Source: Aphrocallistes beatrix
Lineage: Eukaryota > Porifera > Hexactinellida > Sceptrulophora > Aphrocallistidae
Direction of reading: 5' to 3'
DNA: 64,000 bases
Assembly (NCBI GenBank): GCA_963281255.1
Contig: OY725488.1
Coordinates: 186,001 to 250,000 of the forward strand
The notes beneath the pieces were generated by a model, which worked only from the letters and a program-made list of their open reading frames with translations, ran no database searches and was not told where the DNA came from. A program made the position numbers and the translations under genes. Shown here piece by piece: positions 8,928 to 26,628 of this stretch; position 1 is the first letter of the stretch; each line of letters begins with the position of its first letter.

Positions 8928-9836
8928 ATGATGTACAAATTATCCAGACACCTGGTAAGCTCTTCCCACAGGTTTAGCCTAGGACGATTAATATACTTGT
9001 GTCGACATAACTCAGACCTGATCATGAAACTGGGAACTGTAACCAGCGTGCTCAACACGCACACGCCCCCTCGTCTGTCAGAGAGTTGGGACAATGTGGG
9101 AGTACTGGTAGAGCCCAGCGCAAAGCTGGTGGTGAGTAGGATCCTGCTCACCAATGACCTCACAGAAGTGGTGTGTAGAGAGGCGGTGGAGAGGAGTGTA
9201 CAGCTGATCATAGCCTACCACCCTCCTATCTTCACACCGTTCAAGCGACTCACACAGTCCACTGCTAAAGAAAGAATTATTTTGCAATGCATCAGGGAAG
9301 GAATGGCCGTCTACAGTCCTCACACAGCTCTGGACAAGATTCAGGGGGGAGTGGGGGACTGGATGCTGGCGGCTTTCAAAGGGGTGGGAGGGGATCAGGT
9401 GGTTGCTGTCATCAATCCACTGCCTGATGACGAGACCATAGGGAGTGGGAGGAAGTTGGCGTTCAGTGAGAAGGTCCCATTATCTAAGTGCATTGATTTG
9501 ATAAAGTCATTCTTGAACTTGAAAGCAGTCAGAGTAGCCACACCTGAGCTGAGTGCGGATGTGTCTGAGCATCTCATCGCTTCTGTGTGTGTGTGTCCAG
9601 GATCAGGGGCCAGCGTGCTGAGGAGTGCAACGGGGGACCTACTTTGGACCGGGGAGATGTCACACCATGAAGTGCTGGACGCAGTGTCTAAGGGAAGGTG
9701 TGTTGTCCTGTGTGAGCACACGCACACCGAGCGGGGATATCTTCAGACGTACAGGGATCTCCTGCTGGCGAAGCTGGAGAACAAGGTGGAGATCCTCTTG
9801 TCCACAGCGGACAAAGAGCCGTTGTCTATAGCTTAG
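8928..9836 (+). CDS. NIF3L1: NIF3-like protein 1 (NGG1-interacting factor 3 family)
   Basis: A 302-residue single-exon member of the conserved NIF3/YbgI metal-binding family, whose molecular role is still unclear; animal members are linked to transcriptional co-regulation and mitochondria. Family hallmarks are WDNVGVLV, the metal-site histidine in AYHPPIF, SPHTALD, the C-terminal GEMSHHEVLDAV and CEHTHTERGYL. The residues preceding MKLGTV are rich in R, S, H and L without acidic residues until NSD, which could be a mitochondrial presequence. The ATG at 8928 was chosen; an internal ATG (MKLGTVTSVL) would give the bare core. The protein is shorter than human NIF3L1 (about 377) in the variable middle region. 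Confidence 0.93.
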   Translation: MMYKLSRHLVSSSHRFSLGRLIYLCRHNSDLIMKLGTVTSVLNTHTPPRLSESWDNVGVLVEPSAKLVVSRILLTNDLTEVVCREAVERSVQLIIAYHPPIFTPFKRLTQSTAKERIILQCIREGMAVYSPHTALDKIQGGVGDWMLAAFKGVGGDQVVAVINPLPDDETIGSGRKLAFSEKVPLSKCIDLIKSFLNLKAVRVATPELSADVSEHLIASVCVCPGSGASVLRSATGDLLWTGEMSHHEVLDAVSKGRCVVLCEHTHTERGYLQTYRDLLLAKLENKVEILLSTADKEPLSIA

Positions 9837-10522: not shown

Positions 10523-13500
10523 ATGCTTCGAACAATCTTCAATCGCAAACAAAACTTTATTCCTGTCAGCGCGACTGCTGACACTTTCGAGATTGAGTAT
10601 GATCCTGAGATTGTTCTGCCCCCTTCTTCAGGACAGCCCAAGCCTCCTGGTGCCCTCCAGACAACCTACGAGGTCTGGTACCTCGGGAGCAAGCAAATTC
10701 CTGAGGCCAAATCCATATCGACTCTTTTTTATACCATCAAACAGGTTTTAAACTCAATCACAGTTTTCTATTTGGAATTTGAAGTTTCTGTTGACTATTG
10801 GTTGTTCTAGATGAGGAAGAAACCTAAACGAAGGATTCGCGTCCAATTCAACTTCGCCCACGGAGTTCTAACCGTAACGCCCTCCAACAGGATCAACGAA
10901 TCCCTCCTGGCACTCCCTTTCTACGCAGTGGCGCTCTGTGTGCTAGACCCAGACCGAGGGGAGTCCGGCTGCATCGCCATCAGCTCCACCGTGAAGATGG
11001 TGCACGAGGTGCACATATTCCAGGGACTATCACACGAGCAGGTAAGAGGACCACTGGCCTATCGTGACGTCACAAGACTGCACCCTGTTGTTACTACGTT
11101 GGTTTTCGCTAGGCTAAAGATGTCATTCTGGGACTTGGCTTTGCTTTCAGCGAGACGGGGCGGGGACAGGCTCAAGTTATTCCTGTGAATCATTCCCGCC
11201 TTCAATGGGACATCCAAGAGTCCGGTAGCAGGAGACCGCCTCCCATTCCCCCCACTCAGTCCTCTCCTCTCCTCTCGAGCGCATCTACTTGGAACCCGCA
11301 GAGGACGCCCTCGTACAATGCTCCCAAAGCGATGAGACCCAAACTGAAGCAAGACCAGGAGCTAGTGTGAGTCTCGTTGCTTGCAGGATTTAGTAACTGT
11401 CTTTCTGACACATACTATACTTGTACGAACTTGTTCCATAGGACCAAATCCTATTCAGTATCATCCCCTTTCCCCCCTCACTCCTCGCATCAGGAAAAAG
11501 CAGCTGAAATTCAATCTGGCCCCAGGAATAAGTATCGAGCTCTAGAAGAGTCAATCAACATTGTGAGGGAGAACAACGGACAGCTACTGAGCAGCTTCAG
11601 GTAATGCAGACCTAGGAAATTGACATTCCTACCGTAATGTGATGTCGTGTACGCCTGTATAGAGATGAAAGGACAGCTGGTTTCGCTTTCTTATCTCAAG
11701 CAGTGAGAGCTGTGTTCACCAACAACACTCAGAAGCTGACTGAACTGTTCAGAAGGAGGCATATTGATCCCAACACCAGGGATGCGGGAGGGAACTCCCT
11801 GATTCACTTTGCAACGCTGCAAAACGACCCGAAGATGGTCTTCTTTCTCCTCAAGCAGTGAGTGCACCTCCCTGTCCTGCCTAGGCAGGCATTTATCAAT
11901 TCTTATTTGGTGCCGCATAGGAATGCTGACATCAACCAGGGAGGGACCTACGGCATCACAGCTCTCCACCGAGCCACAGCAAATCGCTCGACTCAGATGA
12001 TCAAGTGCTTGCTACGGCACAGCGCGAATGTTAACGCTCTTGATGACAATCAGTGAGTTATTTTTCGCAAATGCCATGAACAGTGTTGTACTATTCCCAT
12101 ACTATCCTCTAGGCGTACTCCTATCTTCTTGCTGCACACAGAGAGTACTCCCAAAGACGAACTAGCCATGTATCTGGTTGAGAATGGAGCTGAGATAACC
12201 TGTCAGGACGTAAATGGACTCAAGCCAGTTCACATTTGGCTAGACCTCCAGAGCTACCAGCAATCGCTGGTGACTTCTCTCTGCAAGGGCTTCATGCAGG
12301 CTGTTCCTGTGGGCTACAACCCCGGAGCGTTCCTCGAGTCCACCTCTGTCAGCATCTCTGACAGTCTTCAGACCAATACGATCCACACCAGACACGACTC
12401 ATCCATTTCTTTCCCACAGGTCAGTTAGATCCGTGCAACTTTATAATGATAAATCAGGTTAATTCTATTTGCTGATACAATTCAGAGCGAAGCGGGGACA
12501 GTCCTCATGTTCCACAACGAACCCCTCAGTGAAGAGGAGAGAATAGCGAAACTGGAGAAACTTCGCCTCTCTTCTTCTCAATTCTCTCTCGTTTCTGAGG
12601 ATCCGATAGCAGGAGAGGCGAAGAAATTGTACGAGAACACAGCTGCCATGATAAAGGTTGGAAATAAGGTAGGATGTTAAATCAATTCTAAGTTTTAGGA
12701 ACTTTCTATTACACTTACAATATACCTCAGATGGTACAGCACTTGGAGAAAGACCAACATTTTAAACCTTTGGATTTCTCCGACTTAGACGAGGTGTTGA
12801 GACAGGTGGGAGTGAGTGAGGACTTATCCATGAGTCCTAACTTCCACTCACAGCTGAAGAAACTGCAGGGGGACGCGAAGAGGAGAGAGTGGGAGCGGCG
12901 GAAGTACGGACACAGTCTCAAAAAATCTCAGAAGGGGGGGTATCAGGAGGGGGACCTGGGAATTGAGTGGGTCGCCCCGAGAGAGTTCTACCTCCCTGAC
13001 GGCACTAAACTCGCTCAAATGAAGAAATCTTCTTCGGAGACAATGCTGCACTTGATCAATGCTTCTAAGGAGGTGTGTACGTAGAAAGTGTTAGAATGTG
13101 CGCCTACCAGTATCTTATTCGGCTCATCGCAGGTAACTAAAAGGCACAGCCAGACCATGGATGACACGGTGGTAGAGGCTCCCGCACAAACTGTATTGAA
13201 ACCGGGATTCATGCGGGCGATGCGACAGCTCCGGAAGCCTATCTTCTCACTATTTACCAGCGACAGTGCTACGTCCCAGGAAGCTAGCAGGAGTAAAGCG
13301 AAGAGTAAAATCCATCGAAAACTGACTTCTAACTCTAAGTCTCCCAAGCTGGGGAAGAGACCTTCGCATGCTCCGAAGCCGTTGATCCCGGAGGACCTGG
13401 ATAGCTTGCAGGGAGACTCTCTCTCCTCTGTGCCCGAGACTGGGAGTGAGAACAGCGAGATATTCAACAAGCTGGTCTCTGAGTTGGACCCACAGGGGGA

Positions 13501-16500
13501 CCGCATGGGTAAGATCACACAACTCCCTCTCTTGGAGCACCCCTCCCTCTCCGATATCTTTAGGATGAAGCCATTCTCTGGAGCTGAGTCAATAGAAGGT
13601 TTGTGTGAATAAAAGCAACTAGATATGATATAATGAGCTGTGTTCATCCGATTAGACAATCAGCTCTCAGCTGGACAGGCCATACCTGAGGGCTGGCTCT
13701 CCTCCCAGGGACAAGAGGGCGCTAAAAAGCATTGCCAGGTAGACCCTGACACCGGTAGAGTCCGGTACCTACTTTCAGACGAGAGCAGACAGAGAGCGGA
13801 CTCGGAGCCGCTCAAGAAACAGCTAGGTCCTCAGGTCAGTCATCACAGCTGATAGTCTAGCGCCATATCCTGTCAGCTGTGTGATGTAATCCCCTACTTG
13901 CTAGGTACAGCCGGCGGGTGGAGGTGTGAAGAGGGAGGACGCTATCAAGAGGAGAACAGGGAACTACTCGGACAGTACAACTAGCTACCAAGGGAGCAAG
14001 ACCAACAGGCCCGCCCATCTCTCCTTAGGACTGAGGTATGTGCCACACAGACTAGAATATCCTAATTGCTTCACTGGGATAATGGAGTTCCTGTCTTGTC
14101 TAGACAAAACGAATATAATTCTCAGAGCAAGAGCAACGTTTCAGGCGGGGGAAGCACCATAATCGCACATCCTCTTGGCCTGGGGGAGACTAGCTCGGAG
14201 CCTGGCGCCTCATTCATTTACAAACTCCTGAAGCTGTCCGCTAACTCTGAGTGTCTCAGTCACCTGCTGGCTCACATGGGCCTAACCAAGTTCTTTAAGA
14301 GGTTCTTGTTGTTCGCGAAGGCGTCCGGCGTAAGTGAAGAAATGCGAATCAATATGGGGGTACTTGTGAACAATTTGTTTGAGGTAAACGGTTGCTCAGT
14401 CTTCTCCCCAACCTCCAGCGCCTTTAACGGTATCTGCTTATAGGTGATGCACTCCGAGAGTCAACGCAAGGCGATAGAAGCTGGAATGTTGGAGCTGGTA
14501 GTGCAGCTCGTCAATTCGTACTGGCCTCTTCCCGTTAGTACACATTTCATTTCCAATCAACCAATTATGTAATTGATCCAATTCTGTTAACAGGGCGTGG
14601 CACTGTCCATTCTGAACAGTGTGATCGACTCTCAATGGCCTCACGAATACTTGGTGACGATTGCTAAGTCCCCCATTGCTCCTCTCCTCCACTGTCTGAG
14701 CTCCGGAATCACGGAGAATGACAGTGGGATTGAGAGTGGAAGAAAAAGCTTAGGAAAAATCCACAGGTATCCTCAATTCTCAAAGATTAGTGTAGACTCC
14801 AGCCTCGTACTTTATTGTCCTTGTCTCAAGGGGTCAAGGAGGAAGTTTCGACACGTCTAGTGGGAGTGTATTCTGGTCAGAGTCGTCTCCACTCCACAGA
14901 CTTCAACCCGGTCACTTACCCCAGTCTAGGTCAAGTCGAGACAGCGTGGACGACTCTGGGAAATATAGCTTTGCTTATAAGAGCAAACTTGAAGAAACTA
15001 GGTGATTTTCTGTCTTATAATAGATTGGATGGTATTTAGAAATTGTCAAGTATTGACATCTCTCCTTTCTAGTGAACCTCTACGCAGTTTGTTGTATCCC
15101 TTCACAGACCCCAAGACACTCATCCTTCAGATAATAACCTACACCAGCCACATAGCCCTCATGAAGGAAAAACTGACAATTGGGCACTCCCTCAGTCTCA
15201 TCATCGAGTTTCTCTACGACTCCAACGAGGAACACGTCTTGCTAGCTCTCAACACCATCGCCAATGTGGCTCTCAGGACTTCTAGCCACCGAGTACGCTA
15301 CTACGTTAGAATTATTCTTTTCTGGTAATTAATATCTCTTACGTGCATCGGTTGCTGGCTAGATTCTCGCTGAAGCTACGCTAGTGAGGAAGCTGAGGTC
15401 CTTCCTGAAGCAGGAGTCTATGGCTGCGCACCATGCAGCTCGAGCCCTTGTCTACATGGGAGAGTTTGATGTGGAAGATGTCTATCTGTTCGACCAAGTT
15501 GGGCTAGAAAGATCGAATTCTATCCAGTATTCCAGCACGGAAGGTATAAACAGCTAAGTTTGATTTTATTCATAATTATTTGGACAGTTAGTATAATACG
15601 AATCCATCAAGATAAGCATCCATATACTACGGAGGTCTAGATATGTTTTGTCTTCTACTAATCCTAGATTATTTATATAAATACCTCACAACTTATCTAG
15701 CACCCTCGTATGCATACTCATACATACAAGTAAAAGCAATATGAAATCTAAATTTTAAATATAAACATATAAATCCACCATGGTAACAGCTTTACAAAAC
15801 ATCCATACATCTTCACTACACTAAAAGTATTAGTGGGATTAAAATTGACAGTTGGCATCTTCTCCAATTTCTGTTAGTGATTTTGGGCACACATGTAAAT
15901 TTACAAACTTAACTAAATGACAATTTTCTCTGAGTTGAGTCTTCATTGATTGGAAAATTAATTGATTATTCACGATTGATTCGGCGCACAGCGTTTTTAA
16001 TGGTCTTAGCAGCATTGAAGGTCTGAGAGTTTCGATCATACTTTTCCCCATAGCTTGTAATTCTTTATCCAAAATGGACCCCTCAACGCTTTGCAAAATG
16101 TCTAGGAAGGTTTGGTATCTGTTGTCAATCGCGTATAAATACACACCCTTCTCGAAAACCAGGTAAGCTAACTGTTTGATATTGAACGATGCTGCAGAGA
16201 AATGAAGCGCTGTACCACCATCGCAGTATGTCCCGAATCCTTCTCTGCTCCTATTGACAGCTTGGGGGATAAGAAAGTCGATCAATTTTAAAACTACATC
16301 CTCTAAATTTAGAATATAGTGTTTGTCCTGTTCTAGCTCTATGAATGAAGTTAAATTGCGATCATAGTATGCCTTGGTGTTTGGGAGTTGGAGCAAATAG
16401 TGTAAACTGCAGTGTCCTTCGAATATATTTTCTAATTCTTGTCTTAACAGTTCCCCTGAACTGAAATCTTCAGGGCGATGCTCTAACCAAATAATAATGA

Positions 16501-19500
16501 AGAGGTAAACTTGTATTAGACTATTTTCATAGATTTCTAGATAAAACATTATCTTTGCAAAGCTACTTGAATAACGATGTCGTTTTGCGTAGTGTTTGTG
16601 TACATAGTTTAGTAATCCTGGTTGAAGGTCAATGAGCGTAATCGAGTCCACATTCCTCAATCTCAAAAGCAAGCTCAGATATTTACTATACTCGATTCGA
16701 GTAACTTTCTTGATAATTTTGAAGATTTGCAATAACTGGGAGATAACAGTCTTGTCTTTCTTACATGTGTTCTCCAAATATCTCCACACATCAGTTATAG
16801 TATTGTCTTTCTGACATATGTCCTCTGCATATCCCCACACATCAGTTAGATTAGCAAGAGGGGTACACCTGAAGTTGGTCAATTTTTTTAGTTTTTTGAT
16901 TGATACAGAATGATCCAGCTCTATTAGCAAGTTCATGAAATAAAATGGTTCTCTCATCGAGTACAAGTTCATATTCGTTTGTTTTCCGTGTTTTATAGCT
17001 GCTAGTAGGAATACTTGGAGCAATCTCTCTCCCATTAGAGATCTCAATAATGTTACGTTGATGATATGCTCAGGCGTTATTTCTAAAATCCCGAATACTT
17101 CTGTCAAGTACTTACCTATCGGCATGTCTATCATTGCATAGTTTGACAGCCATGAAGAGTCCCAGTTTTGGTTTCCTATTCTTCTGGCATAGTATTTAAC
17201 TAATACTTTGGTTAGTTCTCCCATTTTCCTGCAAGCGTTCTGACTGTCCATTCCATACGGAGAATAAAACAATTCGACAACTGGTTCCTCCCCTGTCTTC
17301 GTTTCAGAATGCGATTCTAATTGGTGAAGCGGGACTCCATACAACATTGCTCCTTCTAAAGGTGTATGTCCAAGATTATTCTTTATCATAATATCAGCTC
17401 CGGCCTCGATCAGGATTTCAATACAGGAGAGAATCGGTTTCTCTTTTCTGTCAAAGCAATTCCTGTAAGCGTCCACACAACAGTGCAGTGCTGTCATTCC
17501 AAGTCTGTTTCTCAAATTAAGAGGATAGCCTTTTGATATCAGCTCGCGAACTTGATCCTCTAGCCCTAGCCAAGCTGTGTCATGCAGGACTGAATACTCT
17601 ACACATCTTGCCATTGCCTATATTATTAATAAAATTAACGACTAAAGTCTTATTTAACGTAAAATAAATGCCTACCTAATATTTGGTAATGTTATACTAT
17701 AGCTCTCATAATTTATTAATTTCACATCCTCCGTTAGCTAAGCACCTTCGTTGGTTATTCCCACTAAAAAAGTGATGTCAACTATCGATATTCAAATTTG
17801 GTTTTATTAGGTAATAGACCACTTTCTAATAGCTCTCTGACACAATATACATTGTTACCCTAAATTCAAAGATTTTGAGATATAGGACGATTTGTCAAAT
17901 ATGACCAATGCAATATATTGTTCCATATCTCGAAATTTTTTGAATTGGAGAGTTACAAAATATATCAACATGTCAGAAAATCGCCAAAATTTGAAATAAA
18001 TTTGCCTATTGTGCAATAATGTGATGACTTATCATATATTGCCAACGGATATGTGTACTTTAGCATCATGTTTATAAATGCTCGTAATACATTATTATAA
18101 GGTCTGCTGCATGGTTGACGATTTTAGGTTAATCATGTATTACCTCGATGGCCTTCTTTGGTATCCATGGCCCAGATTTCTAAGTAGGTGACCAGGCATT
18201 ATTATAGCGTAGGGTACGACCCGACTTAAGAATCCTAATCCTAAATACTACTCATTCCATTATGTTTCTATTTCTCCAGATGGAACCCCGTTTGTAAAGG
18301 CAGGCAATCTCGAGGCACTGGTAGAAGTGCTAACCAACCTTCCCCGAAAACTTTGGGGAGGGATTCAACTGATGTCCCCAGGTCCTAAAGGGAATTACAA
18401 CGGTCAGTTATCATTCGCAAAGAGTAGATCGAAGGCAGTCAAAGTGGAGCCTACAGAAGAGAAAATATTTGAATTTTTCTTGACTACTTGTCGCTCCTTC
18501 TGCGAGCCGATTATTCTATTTCGTCTTCTAATCCATAGGTTAGCGGCTTCAACTAGTTCCTAGGCATAAATGAATTTCTCTATTTTCTTATGCGATTCTG
18601 CGTCCGTAGGTTCAGGGATCGGTTTACTTACTCCATATTTGATTGGAATCTGGTCGACCTCCCCGCCTCTCGTCTGGTCTACCACACTCTACCCGCAACT
18701 GCCCCCATCCCCAAAACACAGAGACTCGTGCTAGGCGTAGTTCAGTCGTGGCTGAGGAATTTTCCTGAGGATTTTAAGAAGTTTGATTTTATGACAGACG
18801 AGGTGAAGAGGCTGTTACTCTATCCGCTGAAGAAAGTCAAAGGACCTTATTATAGCTATGCTCAGAGCATTAAGAACCTTCTTAGTCAAATTCAAGTAAT
18901 TGATTTCGTTCCAATCTTAAATATTTACTAAGGATTGTTTTTCAGATTTAATTGAAAAATCTTTTAATTCTGAATAGATCAAGCAACGCTTCAAAGAGCC
19001 AGAACCAGTTGTGGTCAGGAAGCCTCACCACAACCATCTATACCAGCTAGTGAGCTCAAATTTATAATTTGCCATTAATTAACTAAGCAATTTAATTTAA
19101 ACTGAGGCTTTATACGGAATGTCGTAGTATGGTACACACGTACCATACTTATTTACTTGTCGTGTTCTTTAGTGCAAGAAATACATCTCTGAGAAGATGC
19201 TTCCTGTCAAACTGGATGATATTATCTTCTTATCTGCTCTACAAATGTTTATAGAGGTAGTTCATAATTGATAAATGCCATATGTTCACATAACTTATTC
19301 TCACTTTTTAATATTTTCAAATTTTTCAGACAGTTGCTGAGAAAAAGCATAAGAGACTTTCAGCATTCTCTCAGGACGGGTAACATGATAATCCATTATT
19401 TTGATATGCTAGTCTACTCTTAGAGATTATCACACAGTTTTAAGACATCCATGGTACATATTTATATTCGTATCTACCTAGAGCCAAACTGAAGAATCTC

Positions 19501-22500
19501 ATCCCGTCAGAATATAGTAAAGTAAAGAACATCTGGAAAAGGTAATTTTATGCAAATAACTTATGGATTAGGGTTGTCGATGATTCCACGTTACTTGATA
19601 GAATTAAAGAGAAGCAAATCGACTTTTCGAGTCAACACCTCAACGAAAGAGACAGTAAGCACCTCTACATTGAGTATTGTCATGCGCTTCCTGGATTCGG
19701 TGGCACTTTCTTTACAATTAAGGTATGATTCTCTCCCGCAGTACTGGATTAGTGTATACCGTCTCAATGCTGCTCTCTGGCAGGAAATCATCTTGAAAAG
19801 AAAATACTCCCCGGTTCAAACCCGACTGCTAGGAATCAGTTCAAGTAAGATCGTAGTCTTGGATATTCAGACCAAGGTACTTATAGCTACACCCGTAACT
19901 ACTAAGTGCAGTTGTCTATGAAACACGAAACATAACTATACATACAATGATTTCTAGGATAACCTGATCGAGTTTCCGTTTCCCTCACTAAAGTCTTGGT
20001 TCCCAAACACAAACGACAATACAATCGTCCTCAACTTCAAAAAACGGAGATATCTATTTCTAGTTGAAGGCGACAGGTACCTTGATACGATAGTGTATAA
20101 CTATTTAGCTAAGTTTTAATTACATTTATTATGATTTAAAGGAAATAACTTGTGACAAATTTTAAAAAAAGTTATTATTAAACAGAAAGCATAATTAAAC
20201 ATGACCTCTTTTCTAATCCTCATCCGTGTTTAACATCATGTGAATGAACTCCTTGTAGTCGATCTGGCCATTCCCATCTTGATCTGCTTCTCGGATCAAC
20301 TCTTCGATTTCTTCCTCCCCGAATTTCTCCCCAATCTGTTGGAACATCTCCTTGAACTCGTCTGTTGTTATATACCCATTCCCGTCGCGATCTAACTGCA
20401 CGAACAGATCCATAATCTGTTCCCGCCAGTTTGATTCGCTCAGACGCTGAGATGCGAATAGAATGAATTCGCCCTGGTCGATTTTTCCATTTCCATCCAC
20501 GTCCATTTCATAGTAGAGAGAGCCCAGTTCATCTTCGGTTGGATGGTATCCCATTCCGGCAAGTAATGAAGCCATTTCTGACATACACAACCCCTCTTCA
20601 CTCTCTGGCATGATTGTGTTAAATTGTTCTACCATCTCGTTTAGCTTTGGCATGGAAGTATTGGAGCTTGGGTTTGAATATCCTGCTGCCATAGCTTCTA
20701 TCTCTAAAAGTCTTTTATTAACCTTATTAAAATTGAAAGACTGGTAATTATTTTTGAAGTTTATGGTATTCGTAAGGAACTCGGCACTAAAATATTGATT
20801 ATTTATTTAATGAATACGTAAAATACCAGTAGTATGTATATACATTGTAACCACGCTATATTTTGTAATTAGCAGATATTATATACAAAATAGCGAAACC
20901 AAGGCCTAGTTTGCGCACTGCAATATGATGATCCATTGAGTTAGGTTGCATAATTCAGCTGCGGGGGTAGAACGTAATTGCTTCGATTCAGTTTCGATTC
21001 AGTTGGCTTTCTCCTGGTAATGGCATTGAAGGAGGTACTCCATCTCAATCGGTTAAAACTAATACAGACTGGGGTTGTAGTAAATATTTTGGAACGAAAC
21101 GTTGGGGCATTTTTCTACATCTCTAATATCGCCATTTACAGTAATGCGCCACATAACGTCATCGATTCCATTTATAGTTAACCATACGTCATCACCTGAA
21201 TTGAAAGCGTAGCTCAGGCCTCGATCAAGCACGTACTTTCTTGATGAGCCACAAAGCTTGATTGTCTGATTACCGTGATTGTGTATGATCATTTGATAGC
21301 GTTCTGACTGGTTCCGAAATTTGAGGATGAATTGCTGGCCTGATACGTGTGGTTCTCTCATCAGCACATGGACATCCGATAAACGCCTCCCAAAAATTAT
21401 TTCGTCTGTTATTCTCAGTGAGGAATGGAATGGTTTCATGTCTTTCAATAATATACGAGAGTTCTTACAGATTGAATTGATGTCATGCCCGCTAGTCAAA
21501 TGAGTACAAATGACGCATGTGAGTTCTGTCACTTGGTTAGAGTGTATCTGATAAAATTCTGTCGCAATTGTTTGGGGAACATTCTCGAAGTATTTCCCAT
21601 CTGCCTCGAAGTTACCATCTCCTTCAAGGTTGTCAAAATGGCCGTATAATAACGGGGCCTGTACGTTCTCATTCTCTTGAGACATATTGTAAGGTTGCGA
21701 TAATATTTTCCTGGTTGGCGTCGGAGCTTGATAAATATTGTGATCTGTCATATCTTGTTTCGATTCAGAAGTTGAGTAGAAGGGTGCTGAAGACCCTCGT
21801 GCATATGTCGGTGTAGAATAGTAAGGCTTTCTATGGTCTGAGAATATCTCAGCTGTGTCAAGTTTGAAACTATGAATGGGATACGGAAGCTCCGGTATTG
21901 AGTATCCTGAACCTTCAGGTCCGCAGGAGCTGTTTGTGTTAGGTTTGACATCGTAATATCCTCCTGTTGTCATCTCTAAAGTTGCTATTCGGGCTACAAA
22001 ATCTGATTACGCTACTGCGATTGTAAAATATTTGTTGCTGCTGCAGTGGTTATTTGTAATGCTCCTCACCGTTTTATACTTACTTTATGATCTAATTTCG
22101 AATCTGTTATAGTACTCCACAATGGTATCTTATTTTCCCTGGTGAAATCCAGGCTAGGGTAAATGCATTTGTGCATATTTGATTGCAAAAGCAACTACCT
22201 CAGCATTATCGAAAGTGAAGCTTTCTCTCTAAGAATTTCCCCAGCGAGATAATGCTATACTAAACACTTTTATACGATATCAACTTCAAAAACTATTTTT
22301 AATTATTTTTACAAATTATCCCGTTCCTGCATAATACGTATTCCTCTTTGAAGTTAAGCAACCCATCAGTATTATCAGCTATTACATGTGAATATTGTAG
22401 ATTCAACACGTGTAGTGATACTTAGGCTTCTACTGATGATATTTTATTTTATTATGCTAGCTTGGTGACTGAGATATCCAATGTGTTACAGCAGTGTGCT

Positions 22501-24416
22501 GATGAAGTAAATGTAAGTTGAACTATTGTGCAAATTGTAAATTGAATTAAATTTATTATTACATATTTGTTGTTTATTAGAATCTCCCCACTGAAGAGAG
22601 GAACCCGCTCTATACTTCATCCGAGCAATCACCTCGTGAAAAGAAACTCTCTAGCTCCTTAGCTTACGAGGACTCTCCCATCAATCGAATGGCAGTCGAT
22701 AACGCTCCTACCAAATGGAAAAAGCCCTCCAAATTACCACAATATATGAGTGCTGAAGACATGGAGTCCAATTCATCTACGATTGCTTCAAAGTCGATCC
22801 TTCCATCCGCAGAGGAGAGCTCGGATGACAACAGCTCTTCCTTCGAGGAGCTGTTGGTTTTGGCCGCCGGAGTACAGACGTCTCCCCTCGCCTTCATGCA
22901 CAACTCAGAGGGGATCCATCTCACTCCCAAGCTCCATCAGGTCTCTTCGCAGAACGGTGTCAGTCGCCGGAAATCTCGAGTTCCTTTAGCAAATATGCCA
23001 GCAGACCCGAGTCCTTCCAGAGTGAAACGTCTCTCTGCTAAACTCTCGCCTAGACGAAGAAAAGGAGACAAGTTCAAAACCCTAACTCCAAAGGGCTCAG
23101 TCAGTAGTCGAGTACATTACCGCGAGAAAGAAGAACTCGCCGCTGAAAGAGATATCATGCATTGGTTATCTCAAACTCGGACATTTGATCCCTCAGAACA
23201 GCAGATCGCTGACGTAGAGGACGTGGGGGTGTTTGGGGGAGTGGGGTTGGGTAGACAGGTCTTCTGTAACTGTCCTCCTGTTCCAGAGTTCTCTCCCACT
23301 CTTAGACTTGATCATATATGGTAAGTTTAGTATTCTGTATCTACCTACTACCAGGCTAGAATTCAATTCATCTGACTCTTTATAATGGAAGTATATACGT
23401 ATGCCTAATATTATATCCAGTTACATGTGTCAAATAGAATCAATTGATATTCTAATTGTTAGTTTGGAGGATTTGTTGCAGAGTCCTAGAGAACTGGCTC
23501 GACAGATCACTTTGATTGACTTCGACCTGTTGGGCAGAATAACACCTGAGGATTGCCTCAATTACGTCATTCCGGAGCAGAGAAGAGGTGCGAGAGAGAG
23601 ATATCAAGACGACGCTATGAAGCTGTTTGTAGATAAAGGGAACTTGGGGAGGTTTGCTTTCAGGTTCGGACAGCTGAGTTCATGGGTGGCGAGCAGTGTA
23701 CTCGTGTTTGAAGGGCTTGAAGATAGAATCGAGGCTCTACGCCTGTTCATAGAGACTGCAATGGTGAGTTAAGGATTTGAATAAATTGCCGCATATTACC
23801 TAAATCAACTCTATTTCATCAGCGTAATCACTAGGAATGCTACCACCTGAAGAACTATCACGCTGTGCACGCCATGGTTGTAGGTGCTCTCCAATCCCCG
23901 CCCATCAAACACCTCGAAAAGACTTGGGACGGAATAGCTCCGAATTACAAAGCCTTTATTTTGGAAATGTCTGAGCTATTTGAGGCTAAGGGCAATTATG
24001 TCAAATATAGACAGTGTATCCAGACGACAGAAGTGCCAGCTGTCCCTTTCTTCCTTCTCTACCTGAAAGACCTCACTTACATCGTTAACGCTAATCCCGA
24101 CTTCCTCAAAGGGGGCCTGATCAATTTCGACAAGCGGCGTCTAATCTACGCCAGGCTCGAGGAAATACAGTATTTCCAGAGTCACAAGTACCAGCTCAAA
24201 AGGGTCACTGAGATAAGGAATTATTTGTGTAACGCACGGTTTGTAGCGCAAGGGAAGTTGCTTCAGGTCGCACTTGGGCTAGAAAGTCGAGACGGTCCGT
24301 TAGGAGAGTCTCAAGGGTCTCTCAACTCCGAAACATCATCTGGCAGAGAACTAGCTAATTTTTATGGTACAATTTCGCGGAATATTTCACGGCGTGGTTT
24401 CTTCTATAAAAAGTGA
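10523..24416 (+). CDS. Giant multidomain Ras/Rap exchange factor: PTB-ANK-ARM-REM-FERM-CDC25
   Basis: I joined 31 coding exons by splice signals and phase: 10523-10744, 10811-11041, 11113-11366, 11442-11600, 11663-11857, 11921-12052, 12113-12419, 12486-12668, 12731-13072, 13133-13598, 13656-13834, 13914-14035, 14104-14383, 14444-14533, 14594-14766, 14831-15001, 15073-15292, 15363-15543, 18280-18538, 18610-18895, 18978-19049, 19173-19256, 19330-19379, 19482-19541, 19602-19722, 19784-19876, 19958-20076, 22461-22512, 22581-23320, 23463-23763, 23835-24416. The total is 6,726 bases, an exact codon multiple, giving 2,241 residues. Domains: PTB/PID about 45-180 (YEVWYLGSKQ); ankyrin repeats 300-450 (GITALHRATANR); armadillo-like helices 960-1300; REM 1303-1485 (VKAGNLEALVEVLT, WLRNFPEDF); FERM F2/F3 1500-1700 (YIEYCHALPGFGGTFF); a Ser-rich basic linker; CDC25 1945-2180 (ARQITLIDFDLL, VPFFLLYLKDL, GLINFDKRR). 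It should activate a Ras/Rap GTPase at membranes or receptor tails. I recall no vertebrate protein with this order. Two genes rather than one is the main alternative. Confidence 0.8.
15839..17614 (-). CDS. Ankyrin-repeat protein with FEM1-like C terminus, nested in a RasGEF intron
   Basis: A single-exon 591-residue protein lying wholly inside the 2,736-base intron 15544-18279 of the large + strand gene, on the opposite strand. N-terminal ankyrin repeats are visible (GMTALHCCVDAYRN, EAGADIMIKNNLGHTPLEG), and another near the end (GTALHFSAASF). The region around 230-450 is helical and unassigned. The last 50 residues (LLRPLKTLCAESIVNN, then VKFVNLH) resemble the C-terminal element of FEM1 proteins, which are substrate receptors of CUL2 ubiquitin ligases, and also loosely a SOCS-box-like helix. 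That resemblance is inference. Coding DNA is distinctly AT-rich compared with the host exons, suggesting an independent origin. The ATG at 17614 is the first in frame. Confidence 0.85.
   Translation of the reverse strand: MARCVEYSVLHDTAWLGLEDQVRELISKGYPLNLRNRLGMTALHCCVDAYRNCFDRKEKPILSCIEILIEAGADIMIKNNLGHTPLEGAMLYGVPLHQLESHSETKTGEEPVVELFYSPYGMDSQNACRKMGELTKVLVKYYARRIGNQNWDSSWLSNYAMIDMPIGKYLTEVFGILEITPEHIINVTLLRSLMGERLLQVFLLAAIKHGKQTNMNLYSMREPFYFMNLLIELDHSVSIKKLKKLTNFRCTPLANLTDVWGYAEDICQKDNTITDVWRYLENTCKKDKTVISQLLQIFKIIKKVTRIEYSKYLSLLLRLRNVDSITLIDLQPGLLNYVHKHYAKRHRYSSSFAKIMFYLEIYENSLIQVYLFIIIWLEHRPEDFSSGELLRQELENIFEGHCSLHYLLQLPNTKAYYDRNLTSFIELEQDKHYILNLEDVVLKLIDFLIPQAVNRSREGFGTYCDGGTALHFSAASFNIKQLAYLVFEKGVYLYAIDNRYQTFLDILQSVEGSILDKELQAMGKSMIETLRPSMLLRPLKTLCAESIVNNQLIFQSMKTQLRENCHLVKFVNLHVCPKSLTEIGEDANCQF
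17615..18279. other. Intron remainder upstream of nested ankyrin gene
   Basis: The rest of the large intron between the start of the nested ankyrin gene and the REM exon at 18280. It is AT-rich, holds the probable promoter of the nested gene and an imperfect inverted repeat at 17860-17948, and shows no further coding region. Confidence 0.5.
17860..17948. repeat. Imperfect inverted repeat
   Basis: Left arm about 17860-17888 (AAATTCAAAGATTTTGAGAT onward) and right arm about 17920-17948 (CATATCTCGAAATTTTTTGA onward) are reverse complements with several mismatches, separated by about 30 bases. This could be a decayed miniature element or a fortuitous AT-rich hairpin. It lies in the intron that hosts the ankyrin gene. 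Confidence 0.45.
20213..20692 (-). CDS. Calmodulin-like EF-hand protein, nested in a RasGEF intron
   Basis: A single-exon 159-residue protein of calmodulin/troponin C type. Three canonical calcium loops are visible: DVDGNGKIDQGE, DRDGNGYITTDE and DQDGNGQIDYKE, each with D1, D3, N5 and E12. The first EF position is degenerate (ESEEGLCMSEMA), so three calcium ions are expected rather than four. The end, YKEFIHMMLN, parallels the calmodulin C terminus. It is more divergent than true calmodulin, so it is a calmodulin-like sensor. It lies within intron 20077-22460 of the large RasGEF gene on the opposite strand, 366 bases from the next nested gene. The absence of introns is compatible with a retrocopy origin. 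Confidence 0.92.
   Translation of the reverse strand: MAAGYSNPSSNTSMPKLNEMVEQFNTIMPESEEGLCMSEMASLLAGMGYHPTEDELGSLYYEMDVDGNGKIDQGEFILFASQRLSESNWREQIMDLFVQLDRDGNGYITTDEFKEMFQQIGEKFGEEEIEELIREADQDGNGQIDYKEFIHMMLNTDED
21059..21973 (-). CDS. TIFA-like FHA-domain protein, nested in a RasGEF intron
   Basis: A 304-residue single-exon protein. The C-terminal part (about 148-285) aligns by eye with TIFA: TELTCVICTHL corresponds to the first strand, IIFGRRLSDVHVLM to the FHA glycine-arginine turn, and HVSGQQFIL to the TIFA VSRVQF segment, followed by a strand-rich end. TIFA proteins are FHA adaptors that oligomerise on phosphothreonine and recruit TRAF6 downstream of the ADP-heptose sensor ALPK1. The threonine equivalent to human TIFA Thr9 is not obviously conserved. 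The first 145 residues are a Tyr-, Pro- and Ser-rich extension absent from vertebrate TIFA. The protein ends NPSLY without an evident TRAF6-binding motif. It shares intron 20077-22460 with the calmodulin-like gene. Confidence 0.65.
   Translation of the reverse strand: MTTGGYYDVKPNTNSSCGPEGSGYSIPELPYPIHSFKLDTAEIFSDHRKPYYSTPTYARGSSAPFYSTSESKQDMTDHNIYQAPTPTRKILSQPYNMSQENENVQAPLLYGHFDNLEGDGNFEADGKYFENVPQTIATEFYQIHSNQVTELTCVICTHLTSGHDINSICKNSRILLKDMKPFHSSLRITDEIIFGRRLSDVHVLMREPHVSGQQFILKFRNQSERYQMIIHNHGNQTIKLCGSSRKYVLDRGLSYAFNSGDDVWLTINGIDDVMWRITVNGDIRDVEKCPNVSFQNIYYNPSLY
21974..22460. other. Intron remainder upstream of the TIFA-like gene
   Basis: AT-rich DNA between the nested TIFA-like start and the RasGEF exon at 22461. 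It probably carries the promoter of the nested gene. No other feature is evident. Confidence 0.4.
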
Positions 24417-24624: not shown

Positions 24625-26115
24625 CTATGAATTCTTATTGCTGATTTTCATTATAGTCGTCTTCACCTCGCAGTATTGCTTTAGTCCCTCTTTTCCCAAT
24701 TCTCTGCCGATACCGGACATTTTGTACCCACCAAACGGTGTGCTATTTTTCACCACATCGAAACAGTTGATCCAGACCATCCCCACCCTGAGACGTCTAG
24801 ATACATACATTGCACTCTCTAGGTCTCGGGTTATCACTCCTCCAGCTAGCCCATACTTAGTGTTGTTTGCTCGTTCTATAGCTTCATCGACTGTCTTGAA
24901 TTTGATGATAGACTGAACTGGACCGAAAATCTCTTCTTTCGCTATTTTCATATGGTCTAGTACGTTTGAGAATATAGTCGGCTGGAGAAAGTACCCCTTT
25001 TCTCCGTGTCTGCTACCACCACATTCAAGCTTGGCGCCTTCCTCCTTCCCACTCTCAATATGCTCTAGAATTCCTTCGAGGCGTTCTTTCGACACGATGG
25101 CTCCCATCGTGGTGTCTGGACTAAAAGGGTCTCCTACTCGGACCTTCATTGCTAACTCGACAGATTTCCTTACAAACTCGTCATAGATTTCCTCTTGAAC
25201 AAAGGTTCTCGACCCTGAGGAACAAGACTGTCCTTGGTTATAGAAAACCGTTTCTTGACTGATCTCCACCGCTAGGTCAACATCTGCGTCTTTCAGTATA
25301 ATGTTTGGACTCTTCCCGCCTAGTTCTAAGGTCACGTTCTTCAGGTTGGTTCTCCCAGCTGCCTGCATGACCAGATGTCCTACCTCGGTGGAACCTGTGA
25401 ATGCCACTTTATCCACATCGAGATGTTCTGCTATCGCTGCTCCAGCTGTCGGACCGTATCCTGGTATGATGTTAACCACGCCTGGAGGGAAGCCAGCCTC
25501 TCTGACCAGTGAGGCCAGGTAGAGACCTGAGAGAGGAGTCTGCTCGGCGAGTTTTAGAACGACGACGTTGCCGGTTGTTAGGGCTGGAGCCAGCTTCCAT
25601 GCTGCCATGGACAAAGGATAATTCCAGGGGATTATCTGGCCGACTACACCTATTGGCTCGTGTTGTGTGTAAGCGAATAGATCTCCTTCCACAGGAATAG
25701 TCTTTCCTTCTAACTTATCGGCCCAGCCAGCGTAGTATTCGAAGCACTTGATGGTGTCCTCAATGTCACTGAGCGACTCCTTCAGTGGCTTACCGTTGTT
25801 GAGGGTCTCAAGTTCTGAGAGATAGTTTGTATCTCTCTCAATCAGCCTAGCTAGCCTATTCAACATCCTTCCTCTTTCTGAAGGTTCAGTTGTACGCCAA
25901 ACACTGTCTAGTTGGAATACTTTCTTAGCTGCTTCAACGGCTTTGTCGACATCAGGTTTCCTACCCTCTTCAACATCGCAAATCTTCTCTCCAGTCACAG
26001 GGCAATATGTCGGGAATTTATTGCCGGTGATGGATGGGACAAATTCATTGTTGATAAATATTCCCGTGTACTTGATGTTGATTATTTTTCCAGTTAGTAA
26101 ACGATATGCAGTCAT
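24625..26115 (-). CDS. Aldehyde dehydrogenase, ALDH1/ALDH2 class
   Basis: An NAD(P)-dependent enzyme oxidising aldehydes to carboxylic acids, probably cytosolic as no targeting peptide is evident. The 496-residue single exon shows the full fold: Rossmann segment [19 protein letters not shown], the NAD loop FTGSTEVG, general base E264 in [10 protein letters not shown], nucleophile C298 in [11 protein letters not shown] and the late EEIFGPVQ and [15 protein letters not shown] motifs. In ALDH1/2 the nucleophile sits among three cysteines; here its neighbours are serines, leaving only the catalytic one. The ATG at 26115 was used instead of a TTG three codons earlier. Retinal, acetaldehyde or lipid aldehydes are all possible substrates. 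It is convergent with the RasGEF gene. Confidence 0.95.
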
Positions 26116-26628
26116 TGAAATCAAGGATATACGTAAATCTAAGTGAAAACAAAATTCAATCAGGTCACCAACACTTGGATAATTTGTTCTAGGGGTTTAT
26201 CTAGGTGCTTTCAGTGTGATTCGATTTGGTGCCGGGTTCCCACCACCCCTGGAATTACAAGATAAACCACTGTTTGGGTGCCATATAACCTCTATCACCT
26301 TCAAAAAAGTGCCGGACTGGAAAATCCTAGATAAACCCATGATTTGTCCCATCAAATATGATTTCTCGGCCCTGGCTTCAATCGAGTATACCAGTGGTTG
26401 GATATTTAAACTTTATTTTATTCTGTAGTAGTGTAATATTGACCATTATAGACATCAGGTAATAATAAATTAGAATAATTAAGTGTAGTATAAACATACA
26501 AACGATTAAACAGTACAGGTAGTTGAGTATTTTAAAGTATTGTTACTTGTTAGAGATTAGCATTCGTTGATGTGAACTTAAAAATGGCTCCCAGGCTTGC
26601 TGATACCTTCCCTATTGGATTGCAGTCG
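26116..26628. other. Region between ALDH start and patatin-lipase 3' end
   Basis: Noncoding sequence carrying the ALDH promoter and the 3' end of the patatin lipase gene. It includes the inverted-repeat element at 26193-26338. A 70-codon open frame through the element has no coding character. Confidence 0.4.
26193..26338. repeat. Short inverted-repeat element (MITE-like)
   Basis: A 13-base perfect inverted repeat, GGGTTTATCTAGG at 26193-26205 and CCTAGATAAACCC at 26326-26338, encloses about 120 bases that are less AT-rich than the surroundings. This looks like a miniature transposable element inserted between ALDH and the lipase gene. No flanking duplication was convincingly identified. Confidence 0.45.

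What the first reader, a model, noticed from the sequence alone, without database searches (positions are those of the whole stretch)
10523..24416. A 2,241-residue PTB-ankyrin-armadillo-REM-FERM-CDC25 exchange factor
Thirty-one exons join with consistent phases, and the total coding length is an exact codon multiple. The domain order links a phosphotyrosine-binding-type module, protein-interaction repeats, a FERM module and a Ras-family GEF in one chain. I know of no described animal RasGEF with this order (SOS, RasGRF, RapGEF, RalGPS, PLC-epsilon, RGL and BCAR3 all differ). If real, it would connect membrane receptors directly to Ras/Rap activation in an early animal lineage.
Basis: partly seen in the sequence, partly recalled or inferred. 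Interest (0 to 1): 0.9.

Follow-up and report, generated by a model that had tools for sequence, protein, structure and literature searches.

The report
Glass-sponge talin-like Ras exchange factor
The gene is real and encodes one very large signalling protein that joins a talin-like adhesion module to a Ras-activating enzyme; relatives sit uncharacterised in sponges and cnidarians, so it looks like an old animal gene family for which no description was found.

Summary
A 31-exon, all GT-AG model at 10523-24416(+) gives 2,244 residues (reader: 2,241) with ankyrin, RasGEF_N, FERM_M and RasGEF domains by Pfam. The N-terminal PTB is not called here, but it is in eight relatives and aligns. The armadillo stretch is supported more weakly. 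The FERM part is not a full FERM: it is an F2-F3 pair, closest by sequence to talin (E 8e-22). Sixteen relatives come from sponges, cnidarians and unnamed sources; 16 of 16 have FERM_M and 13 of 16 also RasGEF in one chain. The RasGEF domains form their own clade (95/90, after dropping four rows) apart from the SOS, RasGRF, RalGPS and RapGEF sequences tried. No bilaterian member appeared, within limited sensitivity, and eight literature searches showed none described. Most likely it is an NPxY/membrane-recruited Ras-type exchange factor; substrate and receptor are untested. A new subfamily of a known kind.

The parts
10523..24416 (+). whole gene, 31 exons, 2,244-aa protein
   Evidence: splice model; collinear with P0001 and P0002
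10655..11169 (+). N-terminal PTB/PID-type domain, about residues 45-170 (exons 1-3)
   Evidence: not called by Pfam here; aligns with P0002 where PID is called; three-row profile finds PTB domains of LDLRAP1 (8e-5), ANKS1B and APBB2 among solved structures
11682..12299 (+). ankyrin repeats, about residues 296-460 (exons 5-7)
   Evidence: Pfam Ank_2 2.1e-11
14195..15482 (+). helical repeats, probably armadillo type, about residues 965-1285 (exons 13-18)
   Evidence: profile matches designed armadillo proteins, best 1.8e-9; Pfam Arm in relative P0121 just under cut-off, 20.5 against 20.6 bits; no Pfam call in this protein
18280..18895 (+). REM (RasGEF_N) domain, residues 1306-1487 (exons 19-20)
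   Evidence: Pfam RasGEF_N 3e-8
19014..19713 (+). FERM F2 lobe, about residues 1500-1613 (exons 21-25)
   Evidence: Pfam FERM_M 4.6e-7; talin-2 F2-F3 8.2e-22 for the F2+F3 profile
19714..22512 (+). FERM F3 (PTB-like) lobe, about residues 1614-1704 (exons 25-28), split by the 2.4-kb intron
   Evidence: aligned to talin F3; Trp at the talin KRW position in 13 of 14 family rows
23491..24140 (+). CDC25/RasGEF catalytic domain, residues 1961-2153 (exons 30-31)
   Evidence: Pfam RasGEF 7.9e-45; found independently in six frames
15544..18279 (+). intron 18, holding an antisense 591-aa ankyrin ORF (15839-17614 -)
20077..22460 (+). intron 27, holding two antisense ORFs: 159-aa EF-hand protein (20213-20692 -) and 304-aa ORF without Pfam match (21059-21973 -)

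Best explanation
This is a single-copy gene for a large scaffold-type Ras-family exchange factor, a member of an undescribed subfamily with the order PTB - ankyrin - armadillo-like repeats - REM - talin-like F2-F3 - CDC25. Most likely working (inferred): the N-terminal PTB and the talin-like F3 lobe, both PTB folds, dock on NPxY-type tails of membrane receptors such as beta-integrins and on the inner membrane leaflet; ankyrin and armadillo-like repeats hold partners or keep the chain closed; docking puts the REM-CDC25 unit beside membrane-bound Ras-family GTPases and swaps GDP for GTP. The catalytic domain groups with the Ras/Ral-type side of the tree rather than with Rap exchange factors, so a Ras-type substrate is my first guess. 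Shown: gene structure, domains, conservation, own clade. Inferred: docking partner, autoinhibition, substrate.
For: Gene and domains. One chain in other lineages: 13 of 16 relatives carry FERM_M and RasGEF together; P0002 has a 6,504-nt reading frame in a 7,362-nt contig and P0011 4,560 nt in 4,827, and P0007's name gives transcript-assembly coordinates, all as expected of cDNA (inferred). Talin relation: best 19 chains for the F2-F3 profile are all talin, ahead of kindlins and KRIT1; Trp of the talin KRW site kept in 13 of 14 rows. N-terminal PTB nearest LDLRAP1, ANKS1B, APBB2, Numb. Own genome has integrin-beta tails (2 matches), one read here with two NPxY motifs (L016), and three talin places. 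Own RasGEF clade 95/90, and a 94/93 fork from the RapGEF/EPAC rows.
Against: Nothing shows exchange activity or any receptor. In this glass-sponge copy the acidic residue at the SOS1 E942 place is Asn (D or E in 9 of 11 family rows, His in P0011), and other conserved Asn sites read Gly and His (SOS numbering and its role recalled), so this copy might be weak. With all 39 rows the RasGEF clade took in a short PLC-epsilon row and was not exclusive; the clean clade is from 35 rows after I dropped four. RasGRP, RalGDS/RGL, C3G and RasGEF1 rows were not in the trees. The nearest solved RasGEF structures are yeast Cdc25 and RasGRF1, both Ras-directed as I recall, but the Ras-versus-Rap call is weak. 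Three relatives lack a RasGEF match: P0001 and P0119 end just before it, P0122 (2,207 aa) has none found. The armadillo match is to designed proteins, natural ones scoring 0.076 at best.
Confidence: 0.72

Rival explanations
1. Two genes were joined: a PTB-ankyrin-armadillo-REM-FERM protein ending in intron 27, and a separate RasGEF gene after it.
For: Intron 27 is 2.4 kb and holds antisense ORFs. The Oopsacas minuta predicted protein P0001 stops exactly at that junction, and P0119 and P0122 lack RasGEF.
Against: The junction cuts the F3 lobe, so the upstream product would lack its last part. P0002, P0007, P0011 and ten other relatives carry both parts in one protein. P0119 ends within the conserved stretch just before RasGEF, as a clipped prediction would.
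Confidence: 0.06
2. It is a Rap exchange factor working beside talin in integrin activation, not a Ras one.
For: The F2-F3 part is talin-like; Rap1 acting upstream of talin is established in vertebrates (recalled). Tree backbones for the catalytic domain are weak (37/10).
Against: In the 35-row tree the family lies across a 94/93 fork from RapGEF2/6 and EPAC2; nearest solved structures are Cdc25 and RasGRF1.
Confidence: 0.25
3. In glass sponges the catalytic domain has lost activity and the protein is now a scaffold.
For: Substitutions at otherwise conserved sites in the model alone or nearly so; long branch of the model in the family (0.93).
Against: Pfam RasGEF 7.9e-45 over the full profile; the P-A-V-P-F-F, NPDF and LINFxKRR stretches are kept. 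The Oopsacas catalytic domain was not seen, so conservation within glass sponges is untested.
Confidence: 0.15

Closest known systems
RasGRF / SOS / yeast Cdc25 (REM-CDC25 Ras exchange factors)
   Same: REM and CDC25 domains; nearest solved catalytic domains are yeast Cdc25 (5e-43) and RasGRF1 (7e-40)
   Different: no DH-PH or SH3; F2-F3 stands between REM and CDC25; separate clade
Rap exchange factors (EPAC, PDZ-GEF) with REM-RA-CDC25
   Same: a ubiquitin-fold or FERM-type module between REM and CDC25 (RA position recalled); relative P0011 also has a DEP domain, as EPAC does (recalled)
   Different: no RA, PDZ or cyclic-nucleotide domain called; catalytic domain not in their clade
Talin FERM (F2-F3)
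   Same: best sequence match for the F2-F3 part, 8.2e-22; KRW-type Trp kept in 13 of 14 rows
   Different: no rod domains, no F0/F1 seen; joined to a RasGEF
KRIT1 (ankyrin-FERM)
   Same: ankyrin followed by FERM; weak match of F2-F3 (4e-5) and of ankyrin in relatives (0.0014, below cut-off)
   Different: no exchange domain in KRIT1 (recalled); talin scores far better
Uncharacterised cnidarian proteins, e.g. Rhopilema LOC135695275, Nematostella LOC5521422, Hydra LOC100197014
   Same: same domain order in one chain
   Different: linker lengths; N-terminal PTB not called in all

Membership tests
CDC25-type RasGEF with REM | CDC25 homology domain over cut-off | tested here: met
   PF00617 7.9e-45
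CDC25-type RasGEF with REM | REM (RasGEF_N) upstream | tested here: met
   PF00618 34.2 bits against 28.3
CDC25-type RasGEF with REM | catalytic hairpin acidic residue (SOS1 E942 place, recalled) | tested here: inconclusive
   Asn in the model, D/E in 9 of 11 family rows, His in P0011
CDC25-type RasGEF with REM | nucleotide exchange activity | not testable with these tools
   needs protein
Undescribed PTB-Ank-Arm-REM-F2F3-CDC25 subfamily | FERM_M together with RasGEF in one chain | tested here: met
   model; 13 of 16 relatives
Undescribed PTB-Ank-Arm-REM-F2F3-CDC25 subfamily | catalytic domains form one clade | tested here: met
   95/90 in 35 rows; not exclusive in 39 rows because of a short PLC-epsilon row
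Undescribed PTB-Ank-Arm-REM-F2F3-CDC25 subfamily | N-terminal PTB | tested here: inconclusive
   no Pfam call here; PID called in 7 of 14 relatives scanned and listed for P0118
Rap exchange factors (RapGEF/EPAC) | catalytic domain inside the RapGEF clade | tested here: not met
   94/93 fork between them
SOS | DH-PH before REM, catalytic domain in the SOS clade | tested here: not met
Talin | talin rod domains after the FERM | tested here: not met
   no talin rod family
Full FERM domain | F1 lobe before F2 | tested here: not met
   no F1 family called; about 60 residues between RasGEF_N and FERM_M

The most novel reading that the evidence does not exclude
A pre-bilaterian class of adhesion-receptor-coupled Ras exchange factor: a talin-type F2-F3 lobe pair inserted between REM and CDC25, with an N-terminal PTB, would let NPxY receptors (integrin or LDL-receptor type) switch on Ras directly without adaptor relays. 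It would date to the ancestor of sponges and cnidarians and have been lost in bilaterians.
Probability: 0.3. Interest if true: 0.75.

Novelty: new variant of a known kind. Interest (0 to 1): 0.56.

Why it matters
RasGEF types are usually told from bilaterians and yeasts. A deeply conserved type in sponges and cnidarians, joining a talin-like adhesion module to a Ras-activating domain, would change the list of Ras regulators of the first animals and suggest a direct adhesion-to-Ras route. Because Nematostella, Hydra and other laboratory cnidarians carry it, the idea can be tested. It is also a caution about gene prediction: the sister-species protein loses its catalytic domain at an intron that here holds antisense ORFs.

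Tried and rejected
Considered: two fused genes (rival; not favoured). Considered: a Drosophila relative, CG34393, from memory; the search lists four papers that merely contain the name and the one passage seen is a gene table, so this lead stayed untested; a fly protein of this kind did not appear. Bilaterian members: not found, but the protein searches take only candidates sharing exact five-residue words and of 0.55-1.75 times the query's length; one search scored only the 7,977 candidates sharing most words. Sycon-like P0122 at 31% identity was reached, which gives some idea of reach. Which organism P0002, P0007, P0011 and P0120 come from: not found. NCBIfam on the F2-F3 part gave nothing of use. 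Structure prediction was not run: the spliced protein is not contiguous in the window and the relatives exceed the size limit. Trees: the first (39 rows) was rebuilt after dropping PLCE1_Anguilla, OWN_L005, Aimless_Sporisorium and P0072_DOCK as long, short or stray rows (35 rows).

Full report
What is there. At 10523-24416 (+) the window holds one gene of 31 exons. Pfam places ankyrin repeats at 322-430, RasGEF_N at 1311-1450, FERM_M at 1508-1613 and RasGEF at 1961-2153, each over its cut-off. The genome (100.5 Mb, 28 contigs, unnamed) is probably that of a glass sponge: the nearest protein is from Oopsacas minuta. That identification is inferred.

Is it one gene. Oopsacas minuta P0001 (1,681 aa; 79% identical over 40% of the searched part) matches from the first residue through the end of exon 27 and bridges the 15543/18280 junction. 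It stops at the 20076/22461 junction, where the intron in our window holds two antisense ORFs, one an EF-hand protein. The other long intron holds an antisense ankyrin ORF of 591 aa. P0002, an unnamed sequence of 2,168 aa, aligns with our protein from end to end, including exons 28-31; its 6,504-nt reading frame fills most of a 7,362-nt contig, as a cDNA would (inferred). P0007's name gives transcript-assembly coordinates. No cDNA of this species was available.

The family. Three protein searches gave 16 distinct relatives: 2 of 6 hits, 6 of 108 (the query P0002 among them), 11 of 13 (the query P0008 and P0009 among them). I counted as relatives the hits with FERM_M beside RasGEF_N or RasGEF. 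The other hits were ordinary RasGEFs and two tapeworm talins. All 16 list FERM_M; 13 list RasGEF. Of the three without, P0001 ends at the intron, P0119 ends just before the domain, and P0122 shows none in 2,207 aa. I scanned 14 of the 16 with Pfam; P0115 and P0118 are known from precomputed lists only. PID was called at the N-terminus in 7 of those 14 (P0002, P0007, P0009, P0011, P0114, P0116, P0119) and is listed for P0118. Named hosts are Oopsacas (sponge) and Oculina, Acropora, Actinia, Nematostella, Actinostola, Rhopilema and Hydra (cnidarians). P0122's name prefix is that of the sponge Sycon and P0121's that of the hydrozoan Clytia, both recalled. P0011, of unknown origin, also has a DEP domain. 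No bilaterian relative appeared, though the searches reached 31% identity (P0122) and returned many bilaterian RasGEFs.

The parts. The F2-F3 profile (three sequences) finds talins first, 8.2e-22, then kindlins, FRMPD4, myosin VII and KRIT1. The Trp of the talin KRW site, which I recall as part of the integrin-binding face, is kept in 13 of 14 rows. Between RasGEF_N and FERM_M there is no room for an F1 lobe. The N-terminal profile finds PTB domains of LDLRAP1, ANKS1B, APBB2 and Numb at 8e-5 and weaker. The 965-1285 stretch matches designed armadillo proteins at 1.8e-9 but natural ones only at 0.076, and Pfam Arm is just under cut-off in P0121; I call it armadillo-like.

The catalytic domain. 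Nearest solved structures are yeast Cdc25 and RasGRF1. In a 39-row tree the family sat in a 97/97 clade with one intruder, a 142-residue PLC-epsilon piece. After I dropped four long or stray rows, the 11 family rows formed one clade at 95/90, and a 94/93 fork set them, with SOS, RasGRF, RalGPS and fungal Cdc25, apart from RapGEF2/6 and EPAC2 (root drawn at the midpoint). RasGRP, RalGDS/RGL, C3G and RasGEF1 were not included. Some conserved positions are changed in the glass-sponge copy, so its activity is a real question.

How it may work. Two PTB-fold modules, one next to the exchange unit, suggest docking on NPxY tails. The own genome has two integrin-beta-tail matches, one read with NPAY and NPIY motifs (L016), and talin-middle matches at three places. 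The gene looks single-copy: of 11 matches with the F2-F3 query six fall in this gene and the other five score far lower. Docking, closed state and substrate are inference.

Known or new. Eight literature searches listed no paper that appeared from title or abstract to describe such a protein; I saw listings and abstract starts only. Of the Oopsacas genome paper (PMC10280926) I saw passages: neither RasGEF nor FERM nor talin occurs in its main text, and it reports three beta-integrin chains. The library holds open-licence papers only. I file this as a new subfamily of a known kind.

Noticed in passing
window 15839-17614 (-) and 20213-20692, 21059-21973 (-): Three antisense single-exon ORFs lie inside the two long introns: an ankyrin protein, an EF-hand protein and a 304-aa ORF without Pfam match.
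   Followed up: partly
window 24625-26124 (-): Aldehyde dehydrogenase ORF of 499 aa next to the gene's 3' end, convergent with it.
   Followed up: yes
window about 9600-9836 (+): Last exon of a NIF3/DUF34 gene just upstream.
   Followed up: partly
window 23835-24140 (catalytic domain) and relatives: One extra residue before the conserved A-L stretch (AIVVAAL type) in 9 of 11 family rows, in none of the other 24 rows of the alignment; a possible mark of the subfamily.
   Followed up: no
protein P0011 (unknown organism): A relative with a DEP domain between PTB and ankyrin; its source might show how old the family is.
   Followed up: no
G000:C9:4544701-4584144 and C1:12136525-12137970: Talin-middle matches at three places, so this genome seems to have more than one talin gene.
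   Followed up: no
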